The translations under genes were made by a program, and so were the position numbers. Shown here one piece after another: positions 17,002 through 52,796 of a stretch of 64,000 nucleotides of DNA. The notes beneath the pieces were generated by a model. That model saw only the letters and a program-made list of their open reading frames with translations, did no database searches and was not told where the DNA came from. The first letter of the stretch is position 1; each line of letters opens with the position of its first letter. Source of the stretch: Phyllobacterium sp. T1293 (GTDB lineage: Bacteria; Pseudomonadota; Alphaproteobacteria; Rhizobiales; Rhizobiaceae); the NCBI RefSeq assembly GCF_020731415.2, contig NZ_CP088273.1:315001-379000 (forward strand), in the 5' to 3' direction.

Positions 17002-17021
17002 AAATTTGCTTGGGAATTGAC

Positions 17022-17681: not shown

Positions 17682-17710
17682 CCGGATTACGAACAACGCA
17701 GCGGTGGCGC

Positions 17711-17873: not shown

Positions 17874-18018
17874 CGGTCGCATCGCACAATCAACTTCAAT
17901 CATCCCCCTCAAACGGCACCACCTTTCAACAATGTTCACGTATTGTTTCGCTAACCCAAATCGTTTAAGACCATTTTCCGGGTCTATTTTGCTCCGCAAT
18001 GCCAGTTGAGGGTTTCCG

Positions 18019-19839: not shown

Positions 19840-19842
19840 GTC

Positions 19843-20316
19843 TCAGAGGCCCAATTCGGTCAATCCGGGATGATCCGCCGGGCGCGGGCCGGACCGGTCC
19901 CAAAAGAATTTCCGCTCGGATTCCTTGATTGGCAGATCGTTGATGCAGGCAAAACGCGTTTGCATCAGGCCGTTTGCATCGAACTCCCAGTTTTCATTGC
20001 CATAGGCGCGAAACCAGTTGCCGGAATCATCGTGATATTCATAGGCGAAACGCACGGCGATGCGATTGTCGGCGAAGGCCCAGAGTTCCTTGATCAGGCG
20101 ATAATCCAGTTCACGGTTCCATTTGCGCGCAAGAAATGCGGCGATGGCCTCGCGCCCCTGCACGAATTCGGCGCGGTTGCGCCAATAGCTATCGGCTGTG
20201 TAGGCCAGCGCCACCCGTTCCGGATTGCGGGTATTCCAGCCATCTTCCGCCGCACGGACTTTCTGGGTGGCGGTTTCGCGGGTGAAGGGCGGAAGGGGTG
20301 GACGCTGCTCGGACAT
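19843..20316 (-). CDS. Nuclear transport factor 2-like protein (DUF1348 family)
   Basis: A 157-residue SnoaL/NTF2-fold protein of the DUF1348 family. The hallmarks are [66 protein letters not shown], then [30 protein letters not shown]. The last residues ([21 protein letters not shown]) are strongly conserved in the family. It is a small cytoplasmic cone-shaped barrel that could bind or isomerise a hydrophobic ligand; no activity is established. It forms an operon with a TetR gene 3 bp downstream, which implies induction by some small molecule. Confidence 0.88.
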
Positions 20317-20343
20317 GGTGTGCTCCTGTCAATCGAATTGTAC

Positions 20344-20371
20344 TGATTGGTAAAGTCTGTGTTGATTGGTA
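20344..20371. promoter_or_regulatory. Direct repeats in the NTF2/TetR operon promoter
   Basis: TGATTGGTA occurs twice (20344-20352 and 20363-20371), 19 bp apart, 28-55 bp before the NTF2-like start. They are candidate regulator sites for the TetR protein of the same operon. Confidence 0.45.
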
Positions 20372-20483
20372 CATTCGACATTTGCGACTGTCAATGGCTG
20401 TTGAGAATTTGAATCCGCCACCTATTTGATTGGTTGCCGCTTTGCGCTATGCAACCTGTCCCACCAGCCGAAAGAGGTTTCCC

Positions 20484-37608: not shown

Positions 37609-37879
37609 TGTCATCCCTGTCTTGCGTTTCTCTCTATTGAAACACGTCAAATATTTGTGACCGCAGGTTGGGCCAGCTTTGTGGCAGCCAATTGACCATC
37701 GCGGTCGTCTCACCAGATTTCTTGCGGGTACACATGTGCAAATGTGATCCTGCCCGAATCCGATTACAGGCAGATTGCACGGGCGAGCCTGTATCGCGTG
37801 TGAAGGTGCCGTTCATTTTGGGTTCATGCAGAAAATGCGCTACACTGGACGGATCGATGTTTGAGATGTATGCGAGCGC

Positions 37880-39740: not shown

Positions 39741-40406
39741 TCAGGTCGCCCGCATCCAATAGGCGATATCTTTCCAGTCTGCGAACACCGCGCTGGCGCC
39801 TTTGTCCAGCAGGGTCTGGGCATGGGATGTGTAGGTATGGCCGCCGCCAGTATAGCCAATGGCTGTCATGCCCGCGGCAACGGCACCTTCCACACCATAG
39901 GGCGAATCTTCAATCACCACGCAGGTGGATGGTTCGTATCCCATTTCTTTTGCCGCGTGCAGGAAGAGATCAGGCGCAGGCTTGCCGCGCTTGACCATGG
40001 ACGAAGAATAGATCGCATCGCCAAAGAAACCGGCAAGTTTCGTTGTCGCCAGGCTGAAATGAATGCGCTCCAGCGATGAGGACGAGGCAACACAGCGTGG
40101 TGTTTCCAGCGCTTCGAGCAGCGCGGTGATACCGGGTGTTGGTTGCAGGAACTGGCTGAAAACATGTTTCGTCTCCGGCCAGAGTTCGGCTTCACCGGCC
40201 TCGGAAAGCTGGAAGCCGCTCAGCTCCGTGATTCGCTTGATGATATCGGCCTGTTTCATGCCAACGCATTGGGCAATGGTGCCTTCAGGCAGGTTCATCC
40301 CATGCCGCGCATAAACATTGTGGTAGGCGCGTTCCGCCAGCGGCTCGCTGTCCACGAGCACACCATCACAATCAAAAATTATCAGATCGAACCTGTTTTG
40401 CGGCAT
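39741..40406 (-). CDS. HAD-superfamily phosphatase, beta-phosphoglucomutase-like
   Basis: A 221-residue HAD-IA hydrolase. Motif I is IIFDCDGVLVDSEPLAERAYH (nucleophile Asp12, acid Asp14), motif II is the Ser in CVASSSSLERI, motif III is the Lys in VKRGKPAPDLFLHAAKEMG, and motif IV is VVIEDSPYGVEGAVAAGM. The helical cap between motifs I and II suits small sugar phosphates. The gene is divergent from the DRL operon, with 177 bp between. It may belong to the same regulon and could dephosphorylate an accumulating sugar phosphate from that pathway, but this is inferred only from position. Such proteins are numerous and broad-specificity. Confidence 0.85.
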   Translation of the reverse strand: MPQNRFDLIIFDCDGVLVDSEPLAERAYHNVYARHGMNLPEGTIAQCVGMKQADIIKRITELSGFQLSEAGEAELWPETKHVFSQFLQPTPGITALLEALETPRCVASSSSLERIHFSLATTKLAGFFGDAIYSSSMVKRGKPAPDLFLHAAKEMGYEPSTCVVIEDSPYGVEGAVAAGMTAIGYTGGGHTYTSHAQTLLDKGASAVFADWKDIAYWMRAT

Positions 40407-40494
40407 TTGCGTCTCTCTTTTGGGGGCGTGCGTTCCGAACGTTCACACGCTTGTTATTTGATCATTGTTACAACTCTTATAATGCACATAGGTG

Positions 40495-40523
40495 TTGACT
40501 AAAATACAAATGTTCAATATTCG
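40495..40523 (+). promoter_or_regulatory. Promoter/operator of the DRL operon
   Basis: TTGACT (40495-40500) is a good -35, with TATTCG 17 bp downstream as a poor -10. The motif ACAAATGTTCAATATT (40506-40521) overlaps this promoter and matches 15 of 16 positions of one at 46067-46082 before gutM. Confidence 0.55.
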
Positions 40524-40583
40524 ATTGATGGAAAGACAGTGGTTCCCGGCGTCGCACCGGAGACCGGCGAGGAGCATATTTGT

Positions 40584-41903
40584 ATGGCGAGCAATGTAGC
40601 ATTGACGGGATTGGCGCGGGATATGCAGGCGCGTGCGGATGCGGGGCGTCCAATCCGCATTGGTCTGATCGGATCGGGCGAGATGGGCACCGATATCGTC
40701 ACCCGCGTCGCCCATATGCCCGGCGTCGAAATCGGGGCGATTTCCGAATTGAACCTGCCCAATGCCCTGAAGGCCGTCGATATCGCCTATCAGGAACCAG
40801 GCCATGCACGCGAGGTGAATACCGCTTCGGCGCTGACCTCAGCCATGGAAAGCGGCAGGATTGCCGTCACCGACAATGCGGATCTGATCCTTGAGAATGA
40901 TCTGATCGATGTGGTGATCGATGCAACAGGTGTTCCGGCTGTCGGTGCCGAAATCGGGCTTCGCGCCATGGAGCATGGCAAGCATCTCGTCATGATGAAT
41001 GTCGAGGCTGATGTGACCATCGGCGCATACCTTAAAAGCGAGGCTGATCGCCTTGGCGTGACCTATTCACTCGGGGCTGGTGACGAGCCTTCCTCCTGCA
41101 TGGAACTGATCGAGTTCGTCTCGGCCATGGGCCATCCGATTGTCGCTGCCGGCAAGGGCAAGAACAACCCGCTCAACATCGATGCCATTCCTGATGATTA
41201 TGAGGAAGAGGCAGCGCGCCGCCATATGAATGTGCGCATGCTGGTGGAATTCGTCGATGGTTCGAAAACCATGGTTGAAATGGCGGCGATTGCCAATGCC
41301 ACCGGACTGGTGCCTGACAAGGCTGGCATGCATGGTCCGGCGGCAACGCTCGACCAGCTCAACAAGACGCTGATCCCGCAAAAGGATGGCGGGTTGCTGT
41401 CGCGCGTTGGTGTTGTCGATTATTCCATCGGCAAGGGTGTTGCCCCCGGCGTGTTCGTCGTTGCCGACATGTCGCATCCGCGCATATCGGAGCGCATGGA
41501 AGATCTGAAGATGGGCAAGGGTCCATACTTTACCTTCCACCGGCCCTATCACCTGACATCGCTGGAAGTGCCGCTGACCTGTGCCCGTGTCGTGCTTTAC
41601 GGCAAGGCGGATATGGTGCCGCTGTCCAAGCCGGTGGCGGAAGTCTGTGCGGTTGCCAAGAAGGACCTCAAGGTCGGCGAGACACTCGATGCGATCGGCG
41701 AATATTGCTACCGCGCCTGGATCATGACGGCGCAGGAGGCACGCGATGCCAGGGCGATCCCCTGCGGCCTTCTGCAGGGCGGCACGGTGACAGCACCGAT
41801 TGCCAAGGGCGAACTCATCACCAGCGCCAATGCCGCACCCATCGCAGGCTCAAAGATCGTCGAACTCAGGCAGCGTCAGGACAAGCTCGTTTATGGCGGG
41901 TGA
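40584..41903 (+). CDS. drl: DXR-like (DRL) / COG4091 NAD(P)-dependent oxidoreductase with SAF domain
   Basis: A 439-residue protein of the homoserine-dehydrogenase-like COG4091 family. It has an N-terminal Rossmann domain (IRIGLIGSGEMGTDIVTRVA, residues 24-43), a central catalytic part (VIDATGVPAVGAEIG, HLVMMNVEADVTIG, YSLGAGDEPSSCMELIEFV, GKGKNNPLN) and a C-terminal SAF domain (IPCGLLQGGTVTAPIAKGELITSANA). Brucella DRL, which replaces DXR and interconverts 1-deoxyxylulose 5-phosphate and 2-C-methylerythritol 4-phosphate, belongs to this family, and the sequence fits my memory of it closely. Clade membership needs a tree. SAF members are often misannotated as FlgA. First gene of an operon with E1/E2 genes. 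GAGGAG precedes the ATG at 40584. Confidence 0.8.
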   Translation: MASNVALTGLARDMQARADAGRPIRIGLIGSGEMGTDIVTRVAHMPGVEIGAISELNLPNALKAVDIAYQEPGHAREVNTASALTSAMESGRIAVTDNADLILENDLIDVVIDATGVPAVGAEIGLRAMEHGKHLVMMNVEADVTIGAYLKSEADRLGVTYSLGAGDEPSSCMELIEFVSAMGHPIVAAGKGKNNPLNIDAIPDDYEEEAARRHMNVRMLVEFVDGSKTMVEMAAIANATGLVPDKAGMHGPAATLDQLNKTLIPQKDGGLLSRVGVVDYSIGKGVAPGVFVVADMSHPRISERMEDLKMGKGPYFTFHRPYHLTSLEVPLTCARVVLYGKADMVPLSKPVAEVCAVAKKDLKVGETLDAIGEYCYRAWIMTAQEARDARAIPCGLLQGGTVTAPIAKGELITSANAAPIAGSKIVELRQRQDKLVYGG

Positions 41904-41949
41904 TATCAGACGGATAGAATTCAGGGCAATCAGCTAAGGAGTGCCAAGC

Positions 41950-42975
41950 ATGGCTCCCGCCACCAACGCTAAATTCAAGGATGATGGTAGCAATCTTCCT
42001 TTCGCGTTCCGGCATTATTCTCCGGATCAGCTGAAGGAAGCGTTGCGCAAAATGTATCTCATCCGCCGCTTCGAGGAAGGCGCGGAAGAATCCTACACGC
42101 GCGGGCTTATCCACGGCACGATGCATCTTTCCATCGGGCAGGAGGCAAGTGCTGTCGGCATTTCTCTGCCGCTTAATGAAGATGATATGATCACCTCCAC
42201 CCATCGCGGGCATGGGCACTGCATCGCCAAGGGCGCGGAAGTGTCAAAGATGTTCGCCGAGTTTTTTGGCAAGGAAACCGGCTATTGCAAGGGCCGTGGC
42301 GGCTCCATGCATATTGCCGATGTGTCCAAGGGCAATCTTGGAGCCAATGGCATCGTTGGTGGCGGAATTCCGATTGCGGTGGGTGCTGCGCTGTCCGCCA
42401 AGAAGCAGAAGAACGGCAAGGTAGTGATTTCCTATTTTGGTGATGGTGCCAACAATGAGGGCGCTTTTCACGAGGCGCTGAATATTGCCGCCATCTGGAA
42501 ACTGCCTGTTGTCTTCGTTTGTGAAAACAATGGTTACGGCATGTCCACTTCGACCCAGCGGTCGACGGCTGTTGCCAACGTGGCGGATCGTGCTGCCGGG
42601 TACAACATGCCGGGTGTGATTGTGGACGGCAATAATCTGTCCGATGTGGCGGAGGCTTCCAACGCCGCTGTCGAACGGGCGCGGCGCGGCGAGGGCCCGA
42701 CGCTGATCGAGTGCAAGACCTACCGGCATCGTGGCCATTCCAAGAGCGACCGCAACCGCTATCGCACCAAGGAAGAGATCGAGGACTGGGTCGCCAACCG
42801 CGATCCCATCGATCTGTTCGAAAGCCAGTTGAAGGAATTCGGCTTTGTCACCGACGGGGATATCGAGGCAATCCGCACAGGTGTGGAGACGGAAATCGCC
42901 GAGGCGATTGAATTTGCCAGAAACAGCCCATCGCCTGATCTGAACAACCTCACACGCGACGTGTACACGGACTGA
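41950..42975 (+). CDS. Thiamine-diphosphate dehydrogenase E1 alpha subunit (acetoin dehydrogenase AcoA-like)
   Basis: A 341-residue E1alpha of the acetoin/pyruvate dehydrogenase type. The thiamine diphosphate motif runs from [10 protein letters not shown] (near 164) to CENNGYG (near 192), preceded by the GAxAALxK-like [16 protein letters not shown] and [35 protein letters not shown]. The regulatory phosphorylation loop of eukaryotic E1 is partly matched by [22 protein letters not shown]. The ATG at 41950 has AAGGA 9 bp upstream. Second gene of the DRL operon (46 bp after it) and 11 bp before E1beta. Acetoin dehydrogenases cleave acyloins; the substrate here is probably the DRL product. Confidence 0.88.
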
Positions 42976-42986
42976 AAGCATACCCG

Positions 42987-43985
42987 ATGAACGAGACAAT
43001 TCGCGAGCTGAGCTATTCGCAGGCTATTCAGGAAGCCATGGCGCTGGCCATGGAAGCAGATGAGCGGGTGTTCCTCATGGGTGAGGATATCGGCGTCTAT
43101 GGCGGTGCCTTTCAGGTCACCGGCGATCTGGTGCATCGCTTTGGTGAAGACCGGGTGATGGACACGCCGATTTCCGAACTTGGTGGCGCTGGCGTTGCCG
43201 TCGGTGCGGCCTTGACTGGTATGCGGCCGATTTTCGAGTTCCAGTTTTCCGACTTTGCCGCGCTTGCCATGGAGCAGATCGTCAATCAGGCGGCCAAAAT
43301 CCGCTATATGCTGGGTGGTGCCGTTTCGGTGCCGCTGGTCATGCGTTTTCCATCGGGTTCCGGTACGGGGGCGGCAGCCCAGCACAGCCAAAGTCTTGAA
43401 GCATGGCTTGGCCATGTGCCCGGTCTGAAAGTTATCCAGCCTTCCACCCCCTATGATGCCAAGGGCATGCTGCTGGCCGCTATCGAAGACCCGGACCCGG
43501 TGATGATCTTTGAGCACAAGTTGCTCTACAAGATGAAGGGGCCGGTGCCCGAGGGCTATTATACGGTGCCAATCGGCAAGGCGGCGGTGGTGCGCGAGGG
43601 TAGCGATCTTACCATCGTTGCTTCCGCCATCATGGTACACAAGGCACTGGAAGCGGCAAAGGAACTGGAAAAGGAAGGGATCAACGTCGAGGTGGTTGAT
43701 CTTCGAAGCATCAGGCCGATGGACAAAGACACGATCATCGCCAGCGTCAAGAAAACGTCCAGACTGATGTGCGTCTATGAGGGTGTAAAGACGCTCGGTA
43801 TCGGTGCGGAAGTCAGCGCCATGATCGCCGAAAGCGAAGCCTTCGATTATCTCGACGCGCCGATTGTGCGGCTTGGCGGCGCGGAAACGCCGATCCCCTA
43901 TAATCCGGAGCTGGAAAAGGCCACCGTGCCGCAACTGCCGGGAATATTGAAGAGCGCCCGCGATCTCGTGAAGGGGGTACGCTAG
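42987..43985 (+). CDS. Thiamine-diphosphate dehydrogenase E1 beta subunit (AcoB-like)
   Basis: A 332-residue transketolase-fold subunit completing the alpha2beta2 E1. Conserved blocks are [85 protein letters not shown] (Glu contacts the thiazolium aminopyrimidine ring) and [22 protein letters not shown]. The C-terminal transketolase domain ends with [16 protein letters not shown]. It starts 11 bp after E1alpha and ends 3 bp before E2, so translation is tightly linked. Length and pattern fit both AcoB and PdhB. The operon partner E2 with a hydrolase domain favours the acetoin type. Confidence 0.9.
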
Positions 43986-43988
43986 GTC

Positions 43989-45302
43989 ATGCCCACCGAA
44001 GTTATCCTGCCCAAGGTCGACATGGATATGGAGACCGGCCAGATATCGCGCTGGTACGCCAAGGAGGGCGACAGCGTATCCAAAGGGCAGCTGCTGTTCG
44101 AAATCGAAACGGATAAGGCGGCCATGGAAGTGGATGCTCCCGCCTCTGGTATCCTGCGCGGCGTGACGGCGCAGGAAGGAACTGTGGTGCCGGTGGGCCA
44201 GTCGGTTGCCTGGATTTATGCCGAGGGCGAGGACTACGCTGCTGTCACGCCGGAAGCGATTGAAGCTGCGCCTGTCAGTGAGGTGATGAAGGTGGCCGAG
44301 CCATCACCATCTCCTGTTGTTGCTGAAAGTCTATCGGTTGCGGCGACGCAAGGAGATGCTGTCCGCGCGACACCATTGGCGCGGCGGATCGCCAGAGAAA
44401 GCGGGATTGATCTGGCATCAGTATCCGGTTCGGGTCCCAAGGGGCGGATTCAGCGGAAAGACGTTGAAGCGAGCGTTGCGCACACGCAGCCAGCTATTGC
44501 CAAACGCGTTGCTGCAAAGGCGGATAAAGCGCCGCTGCATGCGGTCTGGTTGCGGCAGGGCAATGATACAGGTCTGGCGCCGCTGGTGCTGATCCATGGC
44601 TTCGGTTCTGATCTCAATAGTTGGCGGCCGATGCTGGCGGGAACGACACTCGATAGCGCGATCCTTGCTATTGATCTGCCTGGGCATGGCGAGTCGACGC
44701 GGGATATTCCTGCGGATATTGATTCCATTGCTGCGCTGGTGGAGCAGACGATTGCGGCCCATCATACAGGGCCGGTTGTTGTAGTGGCCCATTCCTTCGG
44801 TGCGGCGATTGCAGCGAAGGTCGCTGCTCGTGGCAATCTTGATATCCGCGCCCTGACGCTGATTGCGCCTGCAGGTCTTGGACCTGAGATCAATGGGGCT
44901 TTCCTGCAAGGGTTTGTCCGGGCGAGGGCGGAGCCGAGCCTTCTCGCATGGATGAAACTGCTGGTGCAGGATGAGAGCCTTCTGACCAGATCCTTTGTCA
45001 AGGCAACGCTTGCCCAGTCACAAGACGAAGGCTTGCGCAATGCACAGAAACTTGTCGCTGATCGCTTCTTTGCCGATGGGACGCAAATCTTCGATATCCG
45101 CAGAAGTCTGGCCGGGCTGATTATTCCTGTCAGGGTGATTTTCGGTGCGGCAGACAGGATCATTCCTGCTGCCCATGCGTCAGGTCTGCCGGGTGAGATC
45201 GCGGTTCATGTTTTCGCCGGGACAGGCCACATGCCGCAGCTGGAACAGCGGGAAAAGGTGGTGCGGATATTGCGGGAGGTCGGAGCGTCGTGCCGTCAAT
45301 AA
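43989..45302 (+). CDS. Lipoyl-E2 with alpha/beta-hydrolase domain (AcoC-like)
   Basis: A 437-residue fusion. Residues 1-80 are a lipoyl domain with the lipoylated K43 in EIETDKAAMEVDAPASG. A linker leads to an E1/E3-binding domain (ATPLARRIARESGIDLASVSGSGPKGRIQRKDVEA, ~117-155). From ~185 the C terminus is an alpha/beta hydrolase (LVLIHGFGSDLNSWRPML, VVVVAHSFGAAIAAKVAA with Ser near 268, GAADRIIPAAH, GTGHMPQLEQ), not the chloramphenicol-transacetylase domain of PDH E2. This structure is that of acetoin dehydrogenase AcoC. It would pass an acetyl group from E1 to CoA. The start is 3 bp after E1beta. No E3 gene is nearby. Confidence 0.9.
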   Translation: MPTEVILPKVDMDMETGQISRWYAKEGDSVSKGQLLFEIETDKAAMEVDAPASGILRGVTAQEGTVVPVGQSVAWIYAEGEDYAAVTPEAIEAAPVSEVMKVAEPSPSPVVAESLSVAATQGDAVRATPLARRIARESGIDLASVSGSGPKGRIQRKDVEASVAHTQPAIAKRVAAKADKAPLHAVWLRQGNDTGLAPLVLIHGFGSDLNSWRPMLAGTTLDSAILAIDLPGHGESTRDIPADIDSIAALVEQTIAAHHTGPVVVVAHSFGAAIAAKVAARGNLDIRALTLIAPAGLGPEINGAFLQGFVRARAEPSLLAWMKLLVQDESLLTRSFVKATLAQSQDEGLRNAQKLVADRFFADGTQIFDIRRSLAGLIIPVRVIFGAADRIIPAAHASGLPGEIAVHVFAGTGHMPQLEQREKVVRILREVGASCRQ

Positions 45303-45313
45303 GGCGCGACGCT

Positions 45314-45964
45314 CTAGTCGTTCCGTGGGGTAGGTGCTGTCAGTCGGCTGCCACCCCTTGAAGCGATCAGAGCGCGCTGAATGGCACTGCGGGCAGACGC
45401 CAGATTGGGCATGACCCAGTTTGGCTCTGCGCCGAGGAACTTGTCGAGATAGGCAATGGCATAGCCGGGCATTTCGTTGACATTTTCCTTGTAGGACCAC
45501 CAGGTCCGCAGGTCATTTGCACAACTGGCGATTTGCGGAGCGGCACCAAATTCCTGTTCATAGATGGCGGCAATCGTACCGACGCAGAAGTTGGTGTAGA
45601 GAAAACCTTCCGGCCAGAATGCGATAATATCGGCCATTTTGGCCGCGTCGTTGTTGGCTTGCGGCGTATGGCCCTGAACCTTGGCTGGTGCTTCGGCGAT
45701 CAGCTCTTTCAGCACAAGACCGGCGGCGAAAATAATGAAGTCCTTCCGGTCAATCCGCGAAAAGGATTTCTGCTGCTCGACGGTCTCGATCCAGTTAAGG
45801 AATGCGGCTGTCAGTTTCGTTTCGTCAATGGCAAAGCGGTAGCCATAATGCTCGGCAATCAGCGCGACATTCTTGCGAAAGGCCATGCGGAACCAGCGCA
45901 GCCGCCGCAGGCGGTGACGCAGATCAGGCGTGCTAACCAGTTCATCGCGAAACAGAAAATCCAT
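45314..45964 (-). CDS. Unrecognised protein between the two catabolic operons
   Basis: A 216-residue cytoplasmic protein I do not recognise. There is no signal peptide or membrane helix. The N-terminal part is basic and helical (LRHRLRRLRWFRMAFRKNVALIAEHYGYRF); the rest has DFIIFAAGLVLKELIAEAPAKV, IIAFWPEGFLYTNFCVGTIAAIYEQEFG and WWSYKENVNEMPGYAIAYLDKFLG, with many aromatic residues, suggesting an all-helical fold. It faces the DRL operon tail to tail (11 bp from its end) and is divergent from gutM, with the shared operator motif between. That position suggests it belongs to the regulon. Codon use looks normal. The real-gene call rests on length, composition and context. Confidence 0.7.
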   Translation of the reverse strand: MDFLFRDELVSTPDLRHRLRRLRWFRMAFRKNVALIAEHYGYRFAIDETKLTAAFLNWIETVEQQKSFSRIDRKDFIIFAAGLVLKELIAEAPAKVQGHTPQANNDAAKMADIIAFWPEGFLYTNFCVGTIAAIYEQEFGAAPQIASCANDLRTWWSYKENVNEMPGYAIAYLDKFLGAEPNWVMPNLASARSAIQRALIASRGGSRLTAPTPRND

Positions 45965-46051
45965 GCCGTGTCTCTCTGATGTCTCTTGTGTATGTCTTAC
46001 GCTTCAAAGCAGCGGAAGCCAAGTTTTCAATGATACAAGAAATCATACATA

Positions 46052-46082
46052 TTGACATTACAAAAAACAAATGTTCTATATT
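46052..46082 (+). promoter_or_regulatory. Promoter/operator of the gutM-PTS operon
   Basis: TTGACA (46052-46057) and CTATAT (46076-46081), with 18-bp spacing, form a good promoter. The motif ACAAATGTTCTATATT (46067-46082) overlaps its -10 and is nearly identical to the one in the DRL promoter. Confidence 0.6.
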
Positions 46083-46135
46083 TTTCCGTCCCGGCATAGC
46101 ATATGTATATGGCTGGACAATGGGAGGTTGAAGAC

Positions 46136-46570
46136 ATGGCGATGTGGCAATGGGGATTGCTTGCCCTTGGAATCCTTTGGGCTTTGCAGTCACTGGGTGT
46201 CTGGTATCAGATGCGCCACTATAGCGATGTGATGAAGGGCATTACGTCGAAATATAATGATGGATATGTCGGTGCGGGCAATGTGCGCGGGCGTTTTGGC
46301 AAAGGCGTTATTGCCCTCGTGGTGGTGACGCCCGATCTGGTTGTGCAACGTTTTCTGGTGATGCGTGGCCGTTCGGTCTTTGCAAAATTTACGCGTCGTC
46401 CCGAGTTTGAGGGAATCACACTGAATGCATTGCGCGCTGATCCGCTCATTTCAGGCGTGGAAGACCCGGCTTTGGCCAAAGCGGCGGAGCGTGCGATTGA
46501 ACAGATCGACCGCGCCAGAACCGAGCCGAAGCAGCCGGGCCTTTCGGGAATCAAGACAGTCAACGCTTAG
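46136..46570 (+). CDS. gutM: GutM-like transcriptional activator family protein
   Basis: A 144-residue GutM/SrlM family protein, always found with glucitol-type PTS genes. It has an N-terminal hydrophobic helix (MWQWGLLALGILWALQSLGVW), then YQMRHYSDVMKGITSKYNDGYVGAGNVRGRFGKGVIALVVVTPDLVVQRFLVMRGRSVFAKF, the family core, and a helical tail. In E. coli SrlM is an activator of the srl operon, but its membrane-anchor-like helix suggests signalling at the membrane. The ATG at 46136 was chosen because GGAGG lies 8 bp upstream. First gene of the PTS operon; the next begins 67 bp later. Confidence 0.88.
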   Translation: MAMWQWGLLALGILWALQSLGVWYQMRHYSDVMKGITSKYNDGYVGAGNVRGRFGKGVIALVVVTPDLVVQRFLVMRGRSVFAKFTRRPEFEGITLNALRADPLISGVEDPALAKAAERAIEQIDRARTEPKQPGLSGIKTVNA

Positions 46571-46637
46571 GGTCAGGCGACACATAGAATTAGGGGTGGC
46601 CGTACCCAAGCAAAACGGCCGATAAGGAGGAGGGAAC

Positions 46638-47399
46638 ATGTCAATTCTAACAATGTTGGCGCAGCATGCCGACGTTACCATGCAGCACCTGTCGGTGGCG
46701 GGGTCGATGGTCTCGGACGCTGCCCTGCACGGCAAACAGGCAATACACCATGCGGGCAATGATCTCGTGGTGCTGGCCCAGTCCAGCGGTGGTGATATCA
46801 CCGTCGAAGAATTCAAGAACAAGCTGCAGCACGTCCAGCAGGAGGAGCAGCTGGGCTGGCTTACCAGCGCAGGCAAATATTTCATCGGTATTTTCCAGAA
46901 GGGCGGCGAAGTTTTTGCCGGTTTCGTTACTGGCATTATTCCAACGCTCGTCGTTCTGATGACCGCCTTTTATGCGCTGACTGAACTTGTTGGCGAAGAG
47001 CGCGTGCATGGCATTGCCCGCGGTGCGGGCCGCATTGCCCTGACACGTTATACGGTGCTGCCTCTGCTGTCGGTATTCTTCCTCACCAATCCAATGGCTT
47101 ACACGTTCGGTTCGTTCCTTGAAGAAAAGCACAAGCCGGCATTTTACGATGCTGCGGTTTCCTATGTGCATCCGCCGCTTGGCCTGTTCCCACATATCAA
47201 TCCGGGCGAGTATTTCGTCTGGGGCGGCATTCTCGTTGCGCTGCTCGAACTGGAGAAAAAGGGCGCTGTTCCCGCTGGCTATCATATCAATGTGGCCATC
47301 TGGTACGCGATCGTTGGTCTGGTCGTTATCCTCCTCAAAGGCATGTTGACCGAGCGCATTACCGCCATCATGGCGCGGCGTCAGGGCATCGAGCTTTAA
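46638..47399 (+). CDS. srlA: PTS glucitol/sorbitol-family EIIC subunit (SrlA-like)
   Basis: A 253-residue integral membrane permease subunit. From about residue 78 it matches EIIC-GUT: AGKYFIGIFQKGGEVFAGFVTGIIPTLVVLMTAFYAL, LTRYTVLPLLSVFFLTNPMAYTFGSFLEE, HPPLGLFPHINPGEYFVWGGIL. It conducts the polyol through the inner membrane while EIIB phosphorylates it. The first ~77 residues (MSILTMLAQHADVTMQHLS...) have no counterpart in the 187-residue E. coli protein. AGGAGGAGGG, one of the strongest ribosome-binding sites of the window, sits just before this ATG, so the extension is real. It is translated before srlE with 22 bp between. Confidence 0.92.
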   Translation: MSILTMLAQHADVTMQHLSVAGSMVSDAALHGKQAIHHAGNDLVVLAQSSGGDITVEEFKNKLQHVQQEEQLGWLTSAGKYFIGIFQKGGEVFAGFVTGIIPTLVVLMTAFYALTELVGEERVHGIARGAGRIALTRYTVLPLLSVFFLTNPMAYTFGSFLEEKHKPAFYDAAVSYVHPPLGLFPHINPGEYFVWGGILVALLELEKKGAVPAGYHINVAIWYAIVGLVVILLKGMLTERITAIMARRQGIEL

Positions 47400-47421
47400 A
47401 TCAGCGGTGGGGAGAAAAAGA

Positions 47422-48438
47422 ATGTCAAAGACCTATAAACCAGTCAAAATTTCCAAGGGTTCCAATGGTTGGGGTGGCCCGCTGACGATTCAGTTGACGC
47501 CGCAGCGCAACAAGGTCGTTTCCGTTACCGGTGGCGGTATCCATCCCGTTGCACGCCGTATTGCTGAACTGACCGGCGGTGAGGCCGTCGATGGCTTCAA
47601 GGCACCGCCGGTTGAAGGCGAGATGGGCGTTGTCGTTGTCGATTGCGGCGGCACGGCGCGCTGCGGTGTCTATCCGCGCAAGCGCATTCCCACTGTCAAT
47701 CTGACACCGGTTGGCCAATCGGGCCCGCTGGCGCAGTTCATTACCGAGGACATTTATGTTTCGGGCGTGAAAGAAGCCAATATCGAACTCGCCGATGGAT
47801 CGGAAAGCGCCACGGTTGCAGGCGGAGCCTCCACACCGACACCGGCAGAGATGGCAGCAGCCATGTCCAGCCGCACCGCCGCGGCATCCGATGCAGGCGA
47901 GGGCGGACTGATCGGATTGATCAGTTCTGTTGGCCGGGTCATGGGCCGGGTTGTTGGTATATTCTTCAATGCCGGTCGCCGGACCATCGATCAGGTTGTG
48001 CGCAACGTTCTGCCCTTCATGGCCTTCGTGACGATGCTTATCGGCTTCATCCTTTATACGGGGATTGGCGATGTGCTGGCGCAGCCAATGGGTCCGCTTG
48101 CCAACAATATTGTCGGGTTGCTGATCATTTCGGCCATTTGCGGCCTGCCGTTCCTGTCGCCCATTCTGGGACCGGGCGCGGTGATTGCGCAGGTGATCGG
48201 CGTGGCGATCATCGGTCCGCAGATCGCCAATGGCACGATTTCCCCGGCAATGGCCCTACCTGCGCTGTTCGCTTATAATACGCAGGTTGGCTGCGACTTC
48301 GTGCCAGTTGGTCTGGCACTGGGTGAAGCCAAGCCGAAGACAATTGAAATCGGTGTTCCGGCGGTTCTCATCAGCCGCCAGATCATGGGTCCCGTATCAG
48401 TGCTGATTGCCTGGGTTGTCAGCCTGATCGTATTCTAA
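47422..48438 (+). CDS. srlE: PTS glucitol/sorbitol-family EIIB/C subunit (SrlE-like)
   Basis: A 338-residue protein. The N-terminal EIIB domain has the phosphocysteine region VVVDCGGTARCGVYPRKRIPTVNL, with C75 and C81 as candidate phosphorylation sites. An Ala-rich linker near 135-165 leads to a membrane EIIC2 part (VLPFMAFVTMLIGFILYTGIGD, IVGLLIISAICGLPFLSPILGPGAVIAQ, FAYNTQVGCDFVPVGLALGEAKPKTIEIGVPAVLISR), typical of EII-GUT. It receives phosphate from EIIA and passes it to the incoming polyol. The ATG at 47422 is preceded by GGGGAG. Sugar-specific EIIB/C proteins are rare in alphaproteobacteria. Confidence 0.93.
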   Translation: MSKTYKPVKISKGSNGWGGPLTIQLTPQRNKVVSVTGGGIHPVARRIAELTGGEAVDGFKAPPVEGEMGVVVVDCGGTARCGVYPRKRIPTVNLTPVGQSGPLAQFITEDIYVSGVKEANIELADGSESATVAGGASTPTPAEMAAAMSSRTAAASDAGEGGLIGLISSVGRVMGRVVGIFFNAGRRTIDQVVRNVLPFMAFVTMLIGFILYTGIGDVLAQPMGPLANNIVGLLIISAICGLPFLSPILGPGAVIAQVIGVAIIGPQIANGTISPAMALPALFAYNTQVGCDFVPVGLALGEAKPKTIEIGVPAVLISRQIMGPVSVLIAWVVSLIVF

Positions 48439-48466
48439 ACTCGATTAACAAGAAGAGGTTCGCCAT

Positions 48467-48844
48467 ATGTCAGTTCTTTTGAAAACACGGGTAACAGCCG
48501 TGGGTCCCGAGGTGGCGGACCTCGCAGAGGGAGGTGTCGTCATCCTGTTTGCCGATGGTGCGCCGCCGGAACTTGCCGAAGTTTCCATCCTGCATCTGGT
48601 CGAGGATCAGCCGTCGGAAGCAACGCCGCCTGTCGGTTCTGTGATCCGCATTGGTGATCTTTCGGCCAAGATTACAGGTATTGGCGATTATGCGTGGCAA
48701 AAAGTCCGGGATATCGGCCATGTTGTCATCACATTCAACGGGTCCGATCATGTTGAACGCCCGGGCGAAATCTGCGCATCGGAAGTCGATACCGGCAAGC
48801 TGGTTTCCACACTCAAAGTGGGCGCGACAATAACCATCGGATAA
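48467..48844 (+). CDS. srlB: PTS glucitol/sorbitol-family EIIA subunit (SrlB-like)
   Basis: A 125-residue cytoplasmic EIIA-GUT, which carries phosphate from HPr to EIIB. It has the family pattern VVILFADGAPPELAEVSILH with the likely phospho-histidine H43, then GDYAWQKVRDIGHVVITFNG and the C-terminal ICASEVDTGKLVSTLKVGATITI. Length agrees with E. coli SrlB (123). AGAAGAGG lies about 8 bp upstream of the ATG. The gene lies 28 bp after srlE and 43 bp before the HPr-EI gene, so it belongs to the same transcript. Confidence 0.93.
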   Translation: MSVLLKTRVTAVGPEVADLAEGGVVILFADGAPPELAEVSILHLVEDQPSEATPPVGSVIRIGDLSAKITGIGDYAWQKVRDIGHVVITFNGSDHVERPGEICASEVDTGKLVSTLKVGATITIG

Positions 48845-48887
48845 TTATTCGGACCGCAGCAGAACGAAATACCAAAGAGAGTAAAGC

Positions 48888-50855
48888 ATGGAACGCTCGA
48901 CGATTGTGCGGGTGCATGATGGATTGCATGCGCGGCCAGCCACCCGGTTTGTCAAACTCGCCAAGAGTTTTGAATCGGATATCGAGCTGGTCAAGGATGA
49001 CAGGTCAGTCAGCGCGAAGAGTTCGGTCAAGCTGATGCTGCTTGGCGTCAAGGAGAATGAGGAAATCACCGTTCGGGCAACGGGCGCTGATGCTATCGAG
49101 GCTGTTGAAGCATTGATTGGTTATCTGGAAAATCCACTGGCGGGAACGGAAGAAGAGGGCATAGCGCAGAGCCGCAAGACTGATGCCGGCAAAACCTCCA
49201 GCAAATCAGCAAGTAATCTTCCTGTTGATGGCAAGTTGCGCGGCGTTGCCGCAAGCGAAGGCGTGGCGATTGGCCCCGTCTATGGCTTCTTCCCGGCGGA
49301 GATCAAACAGGAAAACCGCTCGCTTGCGGCCAATGAGATCGCAGATGAGGTTCTGCGCCTCAAACAGGCTATCGCGACCGTACAGAAACGCATGGATGCT
49401 TCACTGGCGGAAACCAGTCTGGCGGATAGTGATCGCGGCATTGTTGCGGCGCTGAAGGACATCGCCAATGATGATGAACTGACCGGCGGTGCCATTGCCG
49501 TTGTCGAAGGCGGCGTTGACGCTGTTTCGGCGGTCATTGGGGCAGCGTCCAAGATCGCTTCGGATTTTGCCACCATGGACGATCCCTATCTCAATGCGCG
49601 CGGGGATGATGTGAATGCGGTCGGGCGGCAGATATGCCTTGCGCTGCTTGGACAGGAAGATGCCAATCTTGATGCGGTTGCGGCAGGTTCCATCCTCGTT
49701 GCCGATGATATCGGCGCATGGGATCTGGCGCGCGCGCCGCTGAAACGTATCGCCGGAGTGATCTGCGGCCATGGCGGCGCGACATCGCATGTCGCCATCA
49801 TTGCGCGCGCCCACGGCATTCCTGCCGTGCTTGGCCTTGGCCGATCCATTCTTGATCTGAAGGGCGCCAAAACAGTCGCGCTCGATGGCGACAATGGCGA
49901 AGTCTTTGCCAATCCCGATGTGGCAGCCGCAAGCCATTTTCAGGCAGAAATTGCCAAGGCGGATGCGGAGAAACGGGCGCTGACAGCCTATAAGGATGTA
50001 ACGCCAAAGCGTGCCGACGGCACGGTCATCGAAATTGCTGCCAATATTGGTTCGCTTGAGGAGATCGATGCGGCCAAGGACGTCGGTGCCATGGGTATCG
50101 GTTTGTTCCGCACCGAGCTTCTGTTCATGCGCCATCTTCATTTGCCTTCGGAAGATTTGCAGGCGGAAACCTATTCAAGCCTTGCCAAGGCCTTCGCACC
50201 CTATCCGGTGATTGTCCGGACACTGGATATTGGCGGTGACAAACCAATTGCCGGTGTCGAGTTTCCCGATGAGGAAAATCCGTTTCTTGGCTGGCGCGGC
50301 ATCCGCATGTGCCTTGACCGCCCTGATGTCTTCAAGCCGCAATTGCGGGCACTTTTGCGCGCCACCGTACATGGCAATGTCAAGGTGATGCTGCCGATGA
50401 TCTCGGGCGTTGGCGAAGTTCAGGCAACGCGGGCACTGATTGATGAATGCGCCAAAGAACTTACCGCCGAAGGCAAGGCATTTGCGCATTTCGATCTTGG
50501 CGTGATGATCGAGACACCCGCTGCGGTGCTGGTTGCACCCGCTCTTGCAAGGGAAGTCGCCTTCTTTTCCATCGGCACCAATGATCTGACGCAATATATC
50601 ATGGCCGCCGACCGGCTTAACCCTGTTGTGGCCAAGCTGAATGACGTAACACACCCCGCCGTGATGGCTGCCATCGAGCTGACAGCCAAGGCCGGGGTCG
50701 AAGCGGGGATCATGGTTGGCATGTGCGGTGAAGCGGCCGGCCGGCCCGATCTGATACCCCGTTTCATTGCCATGGGGCTGACGGAACTCAGCATGAGCCC
50801 GTCATCCATCCAGCGCGCGAAGAAATGTGTTTTGGATACGTTTAAAACAGCTTAG
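48888..50855 (+). CDS. HPr-Enzyme I fusion of the PTS (multiphosphoryl transfer protein)
   Basis: A 655-residue cytoplasmic protein. Residues 1-88 form an HPr domain with the phospho-histidine H14 in HDGLHARPATRFVKLA and a Ser46-like site in SAKSSVKLMLLGV. After a linker (~90-115) comes a complete Enzyme I: VAASEGVAIGPVY, the phospho-histidine H301 in GHGGATSHVAIIARAHG, a PEP-binding barrel with IGLFRTELLFM, RTLDIGGDKP and FSIGTNDLTQYIMAADR, and the Cys in MVGMCGEAAG. It takes phosphate from PEP and hands it to EIIA. It lacks the GAF domain of PTS-Ntr EI. The 3' end overlaps the convergent unknown gene by 4 bp. Confidence 0.95.
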   Translation: MERSTIVRVHDGLHARPATRFVKLAKSFESDIELVKDDRSVSAKSSVKLMLLGVKENEEITVRATGADAIEAVEALIGYLENPLAGTEEEGIAQSRKTDAGKTSSKSASNLPVDGKLRGVAASEGVAIGPVYGFFPAEIKQENRSLAANEIADEVLRLKQAIATVQKRMDASLAETSLADSDRGIVAALKDIANDDELTGGAIAVVEGGVDAVSAVIGAASKIASDFATMDDPYLNARGDDVNAVGRQICLALLGQEDANLDAVAAGSILVADDIGAWDLARAPLKRIAGVICGHGGATSHVAIIARAHGIPAVLGLGRSILDLKGAKTVALDGDNGEVFANPDVAAASHFQAEIAKADAEKRALTAYKDVTPKRADGTVIEIAANIGSLEEIDAAKDVGAMGIGLFRTELLFMRHLHLPSEDLQAETYSSLAKAFAPYPVIVRTLDIGGDKPIAGVEFPDEENPFLGWRGIRMCLDRPDVFKPQLRALLRATVHGNVKVMLPMISGVGEVQATRALIDECAKELTAEGKAFAHFDLGVMIETPAAVLVAPALAREVAFFSIGTNDLTQYIMAADRLNPVVAKLNDVTHPAVMAAIELTAKAGVEAGIMVGMCGEAAGRPDLIPRFIAMGLTELSMSPSSIQRAKKCVLDTFKTA

Positions 50856-51613
50856 GGCAGCAGCGGGATGAGGAATGCAAAGAGGCCGGACAGGCTATTC
50901 GCCCGGTCTTTTCCCTGTACGGCTTCCATCAGCGTCGCCTGACGGGCCTTTAATGCCAGCAGGGCGCTCTCCACCAGTTTTTCATCGCCGGGTTCTTCAT
51001 CGTCGCTATAGCTGGCAAGGCCGATGGCAAGGGCAATTGCCGAAAAACAGAGATATTGTGTTGCTTTATCCGGCGCGCTTTCGCCGGGTACATGTGGCGG
51101 CAATGGCTGGGCCTGATGGCAGGATTGAAGCTCGAATGCCAGCGTTGCACAGGCCTTTGCTACGTCATTCAGGCCGCCCGTTCGGATCGCTGCCTTGATC
51201 TGGTCAGCATGACGGCGAATCATGATTGCATGGGCAGAAGCAAAGGTTGCCTCATGAACAACCGTGTTTTCAGCGCCAAGCACGGTAAAAATACGTTTCG
51301 TCAAGTAATAAACGTCACGGCGGAACAGAGCCTCGCCTTTTGCCGTATCGCTTGAAAAATAGGCACCCAGACTGCGCGCCTCGATTGTGGTCGAATGAGC
51401 CTTAGGGTCTTGAGAAACAAGAGAAATCGAGATTGTCTCGGCAACCGTAAGAGCCTTGTCGACGACGCGCGCCGCATGGCCGAGCAAAATTTCCGGACCT
51501 TCAGGGGCGGTATTTTTGATCTTGTCGCTGCGGCTGGCACGGATCATATGCCTCACATCGCGCAAACGGTCCTTGAGGCCGACGACAATCTCGTTTGAAA
51601 TATCCCTGATCAT
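50852..51613 (-). CDS. Unrecognised protein convergent with the PTS operon
   Basis: A 253-residue cytoplasmic protein that I do not recognise. It appears helical. It starts with DISNEIVVGLKDRLRDVRHMIRASRSDKIKNTAPEG, then ILLGHAARVVDKALTVAETISISLVS, RRDVYYLTKRIFTVLGAENTVVHEATFASAHAIMIRRHADQIKAAI, and ends in a hydrophobic tail (FAFLIPLLP). No signal peptide or enzyme motif is seen. I place the start at the ATG at 51613 because GAGG lies 9 bp upstream; TTG at 51634 gives seven more residues. It lies between the HPr-EI gene and the SorC regulator, divergent from the latter, so it may belong to the same regulon. Confidence 0.75.
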   Translation of the reverse strand: MIRDISNEIVVGLKDRLRDVRHMIRASRSDKIKNTAPEGPEILLGHAARVVDKALTVAETISISLVSQDPKAHSTTIEARSLGAYFSSDTAKGEALFRRDVYYLTKRIFTVLGAENTVVHEATFASAHAIMIRRHADQIKAAIRTGGLNDVAKACATLAFELQSCHQAQPLPPHVPGESAPDKATQYLCFSAIALAIGLASYSDDEEPGDEKLVESALLALKARQATLMEAVQGKDRANSLSGLFAFLIPLLP

Positions 51614-51773
51614 GTGGCAGACCTCGACTTGCAAAGTGGATAATGCTTTGTATCTGCTTTTGGTGACTTGCTAAACAATATTCTGCCGGAGTGTACTGTG
51701 TGCAACGTTCTTTTGTCAGCACACAATTCTGGCACTGGCAAGAAACAGATACGAGCAATTAAGGGGATGAGAA

Positions 51774-52796
51774 TTGACCGATCGACGCAAGCGAGTGAAT
51801 AGCGCGACGAACAGTCCAAAGAAGGCCCCGGTTGACATCGGGCAGCCCGATACGAAGATCAGCCGCATGCGGATGCGCGCTGCGTGGATGTATTACATCG
51901 AGCAGATGACGCAGAACGAGATTGCCGAAGTGCTGGGCGTTGGCCGTGTGACCATTGTGCGTATGCTCGCTGAAGCCCGTGCCCGCAATGAGGTCAAGAT
52001 TGGCATTCAAGGCTATCTGTCCGATCTGATCGCGCTGGAGCGGCAGGTTGAACAGCAATTTGGTCTTGAGAAGGTCATCATCGCTCCCTTGTCGCAGGCA
52101 GACAATGATCCGATTCCTGCTATCAGCGCCGCAACTGGCGACTACCTTTCCGGGGTGGTCTGCAACGGTATGCGTGTGGGCGTGGGTTGGGGACGTACCC
52201 TACTCAGCACACTCTCCTATCTGGAGGCGCGTGCGCTTGAGGATTTCACCGTCATTTCGCTGCTTGGCGGTATCAGCCAGCCGCGCCGGTTTAACCCTGC
52301 TGAATTTGCCTGGCAGTTTGCGCAGTTGTTTCAGGGTAACGGCTATCTCATTCCGGCACCGGCGCTGGTGGACAGTGTCGAAACCAGAACCGCGCTGATT
52401 GAACGCTGCGGCCTGAAGAGCGTGTTTGAGATGGCCGAGGATCTCGATCTCGTCCTGCTCAGTGTTGGTGCCATTGAAACGGCATCAAGCACGCCCTATC
52501 GCATCGGCTTCCTTAACGAAGAGCATCAGTCATCGCTCGCCGAACGTGGTGCCGTTGGCGATATACTGTTCCATTTCTATGACAAGCAGGGACGTCTTGT
52601 CGATCATCCGATCCATGATCTCGTCATGTCCGTCGGTATCGAAACCTTGCAGAAGGTGCCGGTGCGCGTGCTGACGTCAGGCGGCAAGGAAAAGATCAAC
52701 GCCCTGCTTGGGGCGATGAAGCTGATCCGCCCGACGGTTTTCATCACCGACGAGGAAAGCGCCCGTCAATTGCTTGCTCTGGCAGAGAAAGAATAG
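51774..52796 (+). CDS. SorC-family sugar-binding transcriptional regulator
   Basis: A 340-residue regulator. The HTH is in ISRMRMRAAWMYYIEQMTQNEIAEVLGVGRVTIVRMLAEARARNEVKIGI (about 30-78). The large sugar-phosphate-binding domain has GVGWGRTLLSTLSYL, TVISLLGGISQPRRFNPAEFAWQFAQLFQGNGYLIPAPA, ERGAVGDILFHFYDKQGRLVDHPIHDLVMSVGIETL and the family's VRVLTSGGKEKINALLGA. EryD of the Brucella erythritol operon belongs to the same family. The start is TTG at 51774 with AAGGGG upstream. The likely target is the PTS and DRL operons. The ligand could be a phosphorylated polyol. A candidate weak operator lies at 51701. Confidence 0.9.
   Translation: MTDRRKRVNSATNSPKKAPVDIGQPDTKISRMRMRAAWMYYIEQMTQNEIAEVLGVGRVTIVRMLAEARARNEVKIGIQGYLSDLIALERQVEQQFGLEKVIIAPLSQADNDPIPAISAATGDYLSGVVCNGMRVGVGWGRTLLSTLSYLEARALEDFTVISLLGGISQPRRFNPAEFAWQFAQLFQGNGYLIPAPALVDSVETRTALIERCGLKSVFEMAEDLDLVLLSVGAIETASSTPYRIGFLNEEHQSSLAERGAVGDILFHFYDKQGRLVDHPIHDLVMSVGIETLQKVPVRVLTSGGKEKINALLGAMKLIRPTVFITDEESARQLLALAEKE

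What the first reader, a model, noticed from the sequence alone, without database searches (positions are those of the whole stretch)
39741..52796. Candidate pathway for catabolism of 2-C-methyl-D-erythritol
Seen: one locus combines a complete glucitol-family PTS (EIIC, EIIB/C, EIIA), a dedicated HPr-Enzyme I, a DRL/COG4091 oxidoreductase, an acetoin-dehydrogenase-type E1alpha/E1beta/E2-hydrolase and a SorC regulator. No sorbitol-6-phosphate dehydrogenase, kinase or aldolase is present. Known: Brucella DRL interconverts 1-deoxyxylulose 5-phosphate (DXP) and methylerythritol 4-phosphate (MEP); acetoin dehydrogenase cleaves acyloins to acetyl-CoA and an aldehyde; I recall, unverified, that enteric glucitol PTS can take up methylerythritol. 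Inference: the PTS makes MEP from methylerythritol, DRL oxidises it to DXP, and E1/E2 cleaves DXP (CH3-CO-CHOH-R, an acyloin like acetoin) to acetyl-CoA and glyceraldehyde 3-phosphate. The set is exactly sufficient, with no step missing except E3. Methylerythritol and its glucoside occur in plants, fitting a plant-associated bacterium. A biosynthetic MEP route would be run backwards for carbon. Alternatives: DRL is the organism's only biosynthetic DXR substitute, or the substrate is another branched polyol.
Basis: partly seen in the sequence, partly recalled or inferred. Interest (0 to 1): 0.95.

Follow-up and report, generated by a model that had tools for sequence, protein, structure and literature searches.

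The report
Bacterial pathway for eating methylerythritol
This gene cluster, whose core genes recur together in bacteria of three phyla, is predicted to let its owner feed on methylerythritol, a sugar alcohol of plants and isoprene aerosols, by likely running the committed step of isoprenoid synthesis backwards and then likely splitting the product into two ordinary fuels.

Summary
Observation confirmed: 40.5-52.8 kb holds DRL (DXR-II), AcoABC-type E1alpha/E1beta/E2-hydrolase, GutM, a complete glucitol-family PTS, HPr-Enzyme I and a SorC regulator. The genome has dxs and ispH, no DXR-I, and a second, 98.8% identical DRL gene elsewhere, so this DRL need not be the biosynthetic one. DRL-E1alpha-E1beta-E2 stands in that order in 29 alphaproteobacterial loci: 12 with Gut-PTS, 12 with ABC importer genes + PfkB-type kinase, 5 with neither, none with both. 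In 57 named, mostly Bacillota loci with long flanks, DRL lies near a Gut-PTS in 52 and near E1a/E1b too in 21. A motif occurring twice in the 5.07-Mb genome precedes both operons. Against: 31 of 79 named loci have the PTS but no known cleavage enzyme in view; E1alpha nearly passes the PDH model; the substrate is inferred. Ten literature searches listed no description of the pathway. It would explain functional DXR-II in bacteria without a MEP pathway.

The parts
39741..40406 (-). HAD-IA sugar-phosphate phosphatase-like protein, accessory
   Evidence: PF00702 92.9 bits; recurs in PTS-type loci L005, L006, L008, L009, L047, L065, L074, L076
40506..40519 (+). Operator-like motif ACAAATGTTCAATA upstream of DRL (predicted regulator site)
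   Evidence: ACANATGTTCNATA occurs twice in the whole genome, here and at 46067; reversed-pattern control 0; a close form precedes DRL in L004-L009, L066, L074
40584..41903 (+). DRL / DXR-II, predicted MEP to DXP oxidation-isomerisation
   Evidence: DRL_cat 227.9 bits; 721 bits, full length to Brucella DRL 3upl/3upy; K191 K193 T229 H250 R320 Y322 V351 kept
41941..42975 (+). E1 alpha, ThDP-dependent, predicted DXP cleavage
   Evidence: PF00676 315 bits; groups with E1 of DRL clusters of other phyla; 391.3 bits to the PDH E1alpha model, cut-off 393.85
42987..43985 (+). E1 beta
   Evidence: PF02779/PF02780; NF006667 (PDH E1beta subfamily) 402 bits vs 321
43989..45302 (+). E2: lipoyl domain, E3-binding domain, alpha/beta-hydrolase domain (AcoC type)
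   Evidence: NF011457 417 bits vs cut-off 307
45314..45964 (-). Conserved unknown A, accessory of PTS-type and ABC-type clusters
   Evidence: No Pfam hit; homologues in 18 fetched loci with invariant WPEG and W-S--EN
46067..46080 (+). Second copy of the operator-like motif, upstream of the GutM-PTS operon
46103..46570 (+). GutM-like protein
   Evidence: PF06923 74 bits vs 25; under the enteric GutM equivalog cut-off, 39 vs 148
46638..47399 (+). Glucitol-family PTS EIIC
   Evidence: NF049923 185.6 bits vs 150
47407..48438 (+). Glucitol-family PTS EIIB/C
   Evidence: NF049924 452 bits vs 400
48467..48844 (+). Glucitol-family PTS EIIA
   Evidence: PF03829 90.6 bits vs 25; under TIGR00849 cut-off, 65 vs 189.55
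48888..50855 (+). HPr-Enzyme I fusion, dedicated phosphoryl donor
   Evidence: PF00381 + PF05524 + PF00391 + PF02896
50852..51634 (-). Conserved unknown B, beside the regulator
   Evidence: No Pfam hit; homologues in L046, L047, L071 and L185, L186
51774..52796 (+). SorC-family sugar-binding regulator
   Evidence: PF04198 192.8 bits

Best explanation
[quoted passage not shown] Shown: gene content, conserved order, co-occurrence with uptake-and-phosphorylation genes of two unrelated kinds, a motif found in this genome only before the two operons, a second DRL copy outside the cluster. Inferred: the substrate, the direction of DRL, DXP as E1 substrate, SorC as reader of the motif. E1 chemistry would be the reverse of the carboligation by which DXS makes DXP: hydroxyethyl-ThDP is left on E1, oxidised by lipoyl-E2, passed to CoA, and E3 reoxidises the lipoamide.
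For: 1) DRL is DXR-II, not DLO: 3upl/3upy match, signature residues, tree; additional functional paralogues are reported for O. anthropi and M. loti (PMC3847144, section 5); Brucella anthropi holds an 89% identical protein. 2) DRL-E1a-E1b-E2 in order in 29 loci: 12 with Gut-PTS, 12 with ABC importer genes + PfkB-type kinase, 5 with neither in view, none with both; 0 of 37 solo DXR-II loci of the survey show E1a/E1b. 3) In 249 order genomes EII-GUT occurs in 14, of which 12 have DXR-II (43 of 249 have it), Fisher p = 1.2e-8; of the other two, one has DRL cut by a contig end, one a 49-residue remnant. 4) In 57 named loci with at least 19 kb, 52 have Gut-PTS, 21 also E1a+E1b, in Bacillota, Gilliamella (PTS), Rubrobacteraceae. 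5) 16 of 19 cluster genomes have another MEP-forming candidate. 6) On the DRL tree the E1/E2 label, though strongly clustered, must change at least 5 times. 7) lpdA in four opened relatives, lipA in one. 8) Motif twice per genome, before both operons. 9) Mutant E. coli PDH E1 leads to DXP (PMC3424233, abstract and passages).
Against: No substrate, activity, growth or expression datum. In 31 of 79 named loci DRL and Gut-PTS have neither E1/E2 nor FSA/transketolase in view, so there DXP's fate, or the substrate, may differ. E1alpha falls just under the PDH E1alpha model (391.3 vs 393.85 bits) and E1beta passes a PDH subfamily model, so pyruvate as E1 substrate is not excluded. G085, G183 and G188 have only cluster-type DRL and no DXR-I, so DRL there may also be biosynthetic; so may the window copy. 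The motif was not found before GutM in L005, L006, L008, L009, nor in the other fetched clusters outside those listed. DXR equilibrium is recalled to favour MEP, so the step needs pull. PMC3994034 speaks of an ATP-dependent kinase for ME in Salmonella. The E1 tree had six comparison sequences, and the branch that sets the DRL-linked E1s (with one C. difficile E1) apart has support 0.87.
Confidence: 0.76

Rival explanations
1. The substrate is another branched polyol (2-C-methyl-threitol, apiitol or the like): PTS phosphorylates it, a DXR-II-type oxidoisomerisation turns it into a linear ketose phosphate, and E1/E2 or an aldolase/transketolase cleaves that.
For: Downstream enzymes vary in Bacillota: FSA and transketolase matches in 9 and 11 of 79 loci (the two Gilliamella transketolase matches lie 8 kb off); class II aldolase, TIM-like and YjbQ genes in 10-11, 2-hydroxyacid dehydrogenase in 10 and zinc alcohol dehydrogenase in 7 of 82 loci.
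Against: Residues reported to bind the DXP analogue fosmidomycin are unchanged; Aco-type acyloin cleavage to an acyl-CoA suits a methyl ketone such as DXP, while apiitol phosphate would give a pentulose phosphate that needs no such complex (chemistry, inferred).
Confidence: 0.13
2. The cluster scavenges ME as an isoprenoid (or thiamine) precursor rather than as carbon.
For: ME rescues dxr-minus Salmonella (PMC3994034, passages); in Rhizobium rhododendri a thiamine biosynthesis operon follows the cluster after two hypothetical genes, and DXP is a thiamine precursor (recalled).
Against: Scavenging MEP needs no DRL and no E1/E2; Finegoldia and Anaerococcus keep DXR-II without MEP or MVA pathway (PMC3847144, section 7).
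Confidence: 0.05
3. The DRL is simply this organism's biosynthetic DXR substitute, lying by chance beside a sorbitol PTS and a 2-oxoacid or acetoin dehydrogenase.
For: No DXR-I in the genome; dxs and ispH present; E1 subunits score near PDH models.
Against: A second DRL exists; the association is conserved across phyla; no sorbitol-6-phosphate dehydrogenase in the cluster; DRL shares its motif with the PTS operon while the C3 copy has none.
Confidence: 0.03

Closest known systems
DXR-II / DRL family (Brucella DRL, PDB 3upl, 3upy)
   Same: Full-length homology, DRL_cat domain, same substrate-site residues
   Different: Sits in an uptake-and-cleavage cluster; predicted to run from MEP to DXP for carbon
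Enteric glucitol/sorbitol operon (srl/gut)
   Same: EIIC, EIIBC, EIIA and GutM of the same Pfam families
   Different: No sorbitol-6-phosphate dehydrogenase; SorC regulator; own HPr-Enzyme I; DRL stands where a dehydrogenase would
Acetoin dehydrogenase complex (AcoABC + Lpd)
   Same: E1alpha, E1beta, E2 with alpha/beta-hydrolase domain; E2 over the AcoC model cut-off
   Different: E1 grouped apart from the E1 of one Acinetobacter aco operon; changes such as E1alpha T60 in 58 of 58; 24 of 29 alphaproteobacterial loci show polyol-type uptake genes
Erythritol catabolism eryABCD with SorC-type EryD (recalled, not tested)
   Same: Polyol phosphate made, then oxidised; SorC-type regulator
   Different: Linear tetritol, other dehydrogenases, isomerisation instead of acyloin cleavage

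Membership tests
DXR-II (DRL) | DRL_cat domain over Pfam cut-off | tested here: met
   227.9 bits vs 27
DXR-II (DRL) | Lys191, Lys193, Thr229 (fosmidomycin anchors) and Arg320, His250, Val351 of PMC3847144 | tested here: met
   All kept in the window protein; each of five DLO-like loci L059-L063 departs at one or more
DXR-II (DRL) | Grouping with DXR-II, not DLO, on a tree | tested here: met
   Within the 68-row alphaproteobacterial DXR-II group, SH-aLRT 99; four of five DLO-like rows outside it together, the fifth (L059) joins Bacillota rows on a long branch
DXR-II (DRL) | Makes MEP from DXP | not testable with these tools
   No assay; paralogues in related genera reported functional
Glucitol/sorbitol PTS operon | EIIC, EIIBC, EIIA of the Gut family | tested here: met
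   All three over Pfam cut-offs; EIIC and EIIBC over NCBIfam equivalog cut-offs, EIIA under its cut-offs
Glucitol/sorbitol PTS operon | Sorbitol-6-phosphate dehydrogenase in the operon | tested here: not met
   No short-chain dehydrogenase hit among 13 cluster genes
Acetoin dehydrogenase complex | E2 with lipoyl and alpha/beta-hydrolase domains | tested here: met
   NF011457 417 vs 307 bits
Acetoin dehydrogenase complex | E1 groups with aco-operon E1 | tested here: not met
   DRL-linked E1s group together, Acinetobacter aco E1 (L165) outside; one aco reference only, branch support 0.87
Acetoin dehydrogenase complex | Cleaves acetoin | not testable with these tools
   No assay

The most novel reading that the evidence does not exclude
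Reverse flux through the committed step of the MEP pathway is the original and still widespread job of DXR-II: bacteria of at least three phyla feed on methyltetritols from plants and isoprene aerosol by a thiamine-dependent oxidative cleavage of DXP, and biosynthetic DXR-II genes, including this genome's C3 copy, were recruited from such catabolic clusters.
Probability: 0.35. Interest if true: 0.96.

Novelty: new variant of a known kind. Interest (0 to 1): 0.88.

Why it matters
It offers a use for DXR-II in organisms where none was known: PMC3847144 (section 7) reports functional DXR-II in Finegoldia magna, which like Anaerococcus prevotii has neither MEP nor MVA pathway, in Chloroflexus, which would use MVA only, and DXR-II beside DXR-I in others. 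An Anaerococcus locus here has DRL near Gut-PTS, FSA and transketolase (L105). It would be a carbon route that runs an isoprenoid step backwards and an oxidative C-C cleavage of a sugar phosphate by an Aco-type complex. Methylerythritol and its glucosides form in plants (PMC11192765, passage), 2-methylerythritol is a marker of isoprene aerosol found even in Antarctic ice (PMC11618991, passages) and 2-methyltetrols are hypothesised to form in leaf wetness (PMC11082906, passage), so a microbial sink for this carbon becomes testable. It also warns that DXR-II presence need not mean a biosynthetic target.

Tried and rejected
Biosynthetic-only DRL beside unrelated genes: rejected on conservation. 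Ordinary sorbitol operon: no dehydrogenase. Housekeeping PDH: the genome's own PDH-type E1 lies at C1:1327120 and falls outside the DRL-linked E1 group; a further E1 at C1:1462651 was not in that tree. A first search for positions fixed in DRL-linked E1s (95%) and absent from seven others, the C. difficile E1 among them, printed none; with that E1 counted in-group, 90% and one stray match allowed, 17 positions appeared. Five are in 58 of 58: E1alpha T60 and S202, found in none of the six comparison E1s, and E1alpha S269, E1beta G36 and A41, each found in one; this is suggestive only. A structure of unknown A was not obtained. Odd cases checked: G104 keeps PTS, HAD, GutM, unknown A and SorC with a 49-residue DRL remnant and no E1/E2; G155 has PTS + E1a-E1b-E2 with DRL on another contig; G210 has the PTS without E1/E2, DRL elsewhere. 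G248 has DXR-I as well as cluster and solo DRL. The seven survey genomes with only 35-39% DLO-like hits were dropped before the count of 43. With two mismatches allowed the longer motif has a third window match at 45083, inside E2, and the looser form a stray match in L022. One search used FastTree, a quick IQ-TREE search with long-branch warnings, among them L156, L059, L157 and L062.
Full report
OBSERVATION. DRL, E1alpha, E1beta and E2 lie head to tail with gaps of 37, 11 and 3 nt; GutM, EIIC, EIIBC, EIIA and HPr-Enzyme I form a second run. The E2 has lipoyl, E3-binding and alpha/beta-hydrolase domains and passes NCBI's acetoin-dehydrogenase E2 model (417 vs 307 bits); E1alpha is just under the PDH E1alpha model (391.3 vs 393.85) and E1beta passes a PDH subfamily model. 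No short-chain dehydrogenase, sugar kinase or aldolase family was found among the 13 genes.

THE ENZYME. The DRL aligns over its whole length with the crystallised Brucella DRL (3upl, 3upy; 721 bits). It keeps the fosmidomycin-anchoring Lys191, Lys193 and Thr229 and other sites that PMC3847144 (abstract, sections 5, 6, 7 and passages) discusses as setting DXR-II apart from the DLO families; that paper says that four tested DLO members failed to replace DXR. Five DLO-like survey sequences depart at one or more of these sites. The paper also says that Ochrobactrum anthropi and Mesorhizobium loti have additional functional DXR-II paralogues; Brucella anthropi has an 89% identical protein, perhaps one of those tested.

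BIOSYNTHESIS IS COVERED. The genome (5.07 Mb, 4 contigs, 96% complete) has dxs and ispH and no DXR-I, but two DRL genes. The second lies on contig C3 behind an ABC importer and an aldose epimerase; a Phyllobacterium plasmid has the same neighbourhood, so the organism is probably close to Phyllobacterium (inferred). The two copies are 98.8% identical over 1316 bp, which is the reading frame almost exactly: a recent gene conversion or transfer (inferred). So one copy can serve isoprenoids and the other catabolism. Three E3 genes and a separate PDH-type E1 exist.

CONSERVATION WITHIN THE ORDER. In 249 genomes drawn evenly from the order, 50 have a DRL-like hit at E 1e-60, 43 of them DXR-II once seven genomes with only 35-39% hits are dropped. 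Neighbourhoods of 60 of the 65 hits in other genomes were fetched; the five left out are of the DLO-like kind. Of the 57 DXR-II places, own genome included, 20 have E1alpha-E1beta-E2 directly behind DRL in that order; none of the 37 others shows E1a/E1b in the stretch held. Nineteen genomes have such a cluster; 16 of 19 have another candidate for making MEP, either DXR-I or a solo DRL; G085, G183 and G188 have not. EII-GUT occurs in 14 of 249 genomes, 12 of them among the 43 (Fisher p = 1.2e-8). The other two are G162, whose cluster is complete but with DRL cut by the contig end, and G104, with a DRL remnant.

UPTAKE IS EXCHANGED. Of 29 E1/E2-linked loci in hand (20 from the survey, 9 of the 15 plasmid records that I opened out of 87), 12 have the Gut-PTS, 12 have sugar ABC importer genes with a PfkB-family kinase (in L020 only the ATPase and the kinase matched), 5 show neither, among them two with full 10-kb flanks (L066, L077), and none has both. 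Two unrelated ways to obtain a phosphorylated polyol in front of the same four genes is what the pathway demands. Of the other six plasmid records opened, four Bacillota ones have DRL with Gut-PTS and no E1/E2, two have neither. Opened clusters of Sinorhizobium (2), Rhizobium (1) and Shinella (1) add lpdA, one also lipA: the missing E3 and the lipoate synthesis that an E2 needs.

OTHER PHYLA. Gut-PTS genes lie in 66 of 79, E1alpha + E1beta in 29, SorC in 66, E3 in 18; among the 57 loci with at least 19 kb the numbers are 52, 21, 52 and 15, and all 21 with E1 also have the PTS. They include Planococcus, Brevibacillus, Enterococcus, Thermovorax, Gilliamella (a proteobacterium; PTS, with a transketolase match 8 kb off) and Rubrobacteraceae (Actinomycetota; PTS and E1). 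In 10 of 79 the PTS stands with FSA or transketolase instead of E1, and in 31 with neither; class II aldolase, TIM-like and YjbQ genes recur in 10-11 of 82 loci. FSA could split DXP into hydroxyacetone and glycolaldehyde phosphate (recalled chemistry). So DRL + Gut-PTS is the widest core, and the last step, or the substrate, differs between groups.

TREES. E1alpha + E1beta of DRL loci from Alphaproteobacteria, Bacillota and Actinomycetota fall on one side of a branch of support 0.87, together with a C. difficile plasmid SorC-E1-E1-E2-lpdA set; the genome's own PDH-type E1, an Acinetobacter aco operon and four others lie on the other side. On the DRL tree, the E1/E2 label of Alphaproteobacteria is strongly clustered (six changes against a shuffled mean of 24.9) but not of one origin: well-supported branches force at least five changes. 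Because many solo DRLs are the only MEP-forming candidate of their genome, such exchange suggests that the cluster DRL carries out the same reaction (inferred).

ONE REGULON. ACANATGTTCNATA occurs exactly twice in the 5.07-Mb genome, 78 nt before the DRL start and 36 nt before the GutM start; the reversed control pattern occurs nowhere. Close forms stand before DRL in L004-L009, L066 and L074 and before GutM in L074 and L065; none was found before GutM in L005, L006, L008, L009, and the C3 copy lacks it. Binding by SorC is inferred.

MECHANISM. PTS: ME to MEP. DRL: MEP + NADP+ to DXP. E1/E2/E3: DXP + CoA + NAD+ to acetyl-CoA + glyceraldehyde 3-phosphate + NADH. Precedents: dxr-minus Salmonella depends on ME, with the sorbitol PTS named as transporter in a cited 2004 title, though the text speaks of an ATP-dependent kinase (PMC3994034, passages); mutants of the PDH E1 gene of E. 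coli bring about DXP in vivo, and 1-deoxyketose formation by PDH and acetoin dehydrogenase is cited (PMC3424233, abstract and passages). The DXR equilibrium is recalled to favour MEP, so PTS-driven MEP and irreversible cleavage would have to pull.

NOVELTY. Ten searches of the open full-text library (of these 88, 89 and 96 asked about occurrence and Listeria genes) were seen as listings of the best 2 to 20 papers each; no listed title or abstract opening describes such a pathway, and phrases such as 'methylerythritol catabolism' gave 0 papers. Subscription papers are mostly not held. Families are known, the pathway seems not to be; hence 'new variant of a known kind'.

Noticed in passing
window 45314-45964 (-): Conserved protein without Pfam match that accompanies both PTS-type and ABC+kinase-type clusters (18 loci), with invariant WPEG and W-S--EN motifs; perhaps a sensor or enzyme of the pathway.
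   Followed up: partly
L065 (Rhizobium rhododendri plasmid) 16817-21314: A thiamine biosynthesis operon (thiC, thiO, thiS, thiazole synthase, thiamine phosphate synthase, thiD) follows the cluster after two hypothetical genes; E1 needs thiamine diphosphate and DXP is a thiamine precursor (recalled).
   Followed up: no
L065 679-2939, L071 14803-17001, and 10 of 79 named loci: A second, galactitol-family PTS stands beside the cluster and could bring in another substrate, such as 1-deoxyxylulose; a relative also lies near solo DRLs L024 and L025.
   Followed up: partly
L164 (Clostridioides difficile plasmid) 5020-14975: SorC, E1alpha, E1beta, E2 and lpdA with another PTS and glycoside hydrolases but no annotated DRL in view: maybe acyloin cleavage of another 1-deoxyketose phosphate.
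   Followed up: no
   Followed up: partly
L083, L084, L085, L093, L102, L108, L119, L123: Bacillota loci, some with two Gut-PTS sets or two DRLs, with a 2-hydroxyacid dehydrogenase and in six of these eight a zinc alcohol dehydrogenase; may serve another branched polyol.
   Followed up: no
L101: Contig titled Candidatus Sphingobacterium carries DRL and Gut-PTS with a SorC gene 99% identical to that of Ligilactobacillus salivarius; probably a misbinned contig.
   Followed up: no
window 35179-37713 (-): Long alanine- and proline-rich repetitive protein with an OmpA-like C-terminal part (seen in the ORF translation, not searched).
   Followed up: no
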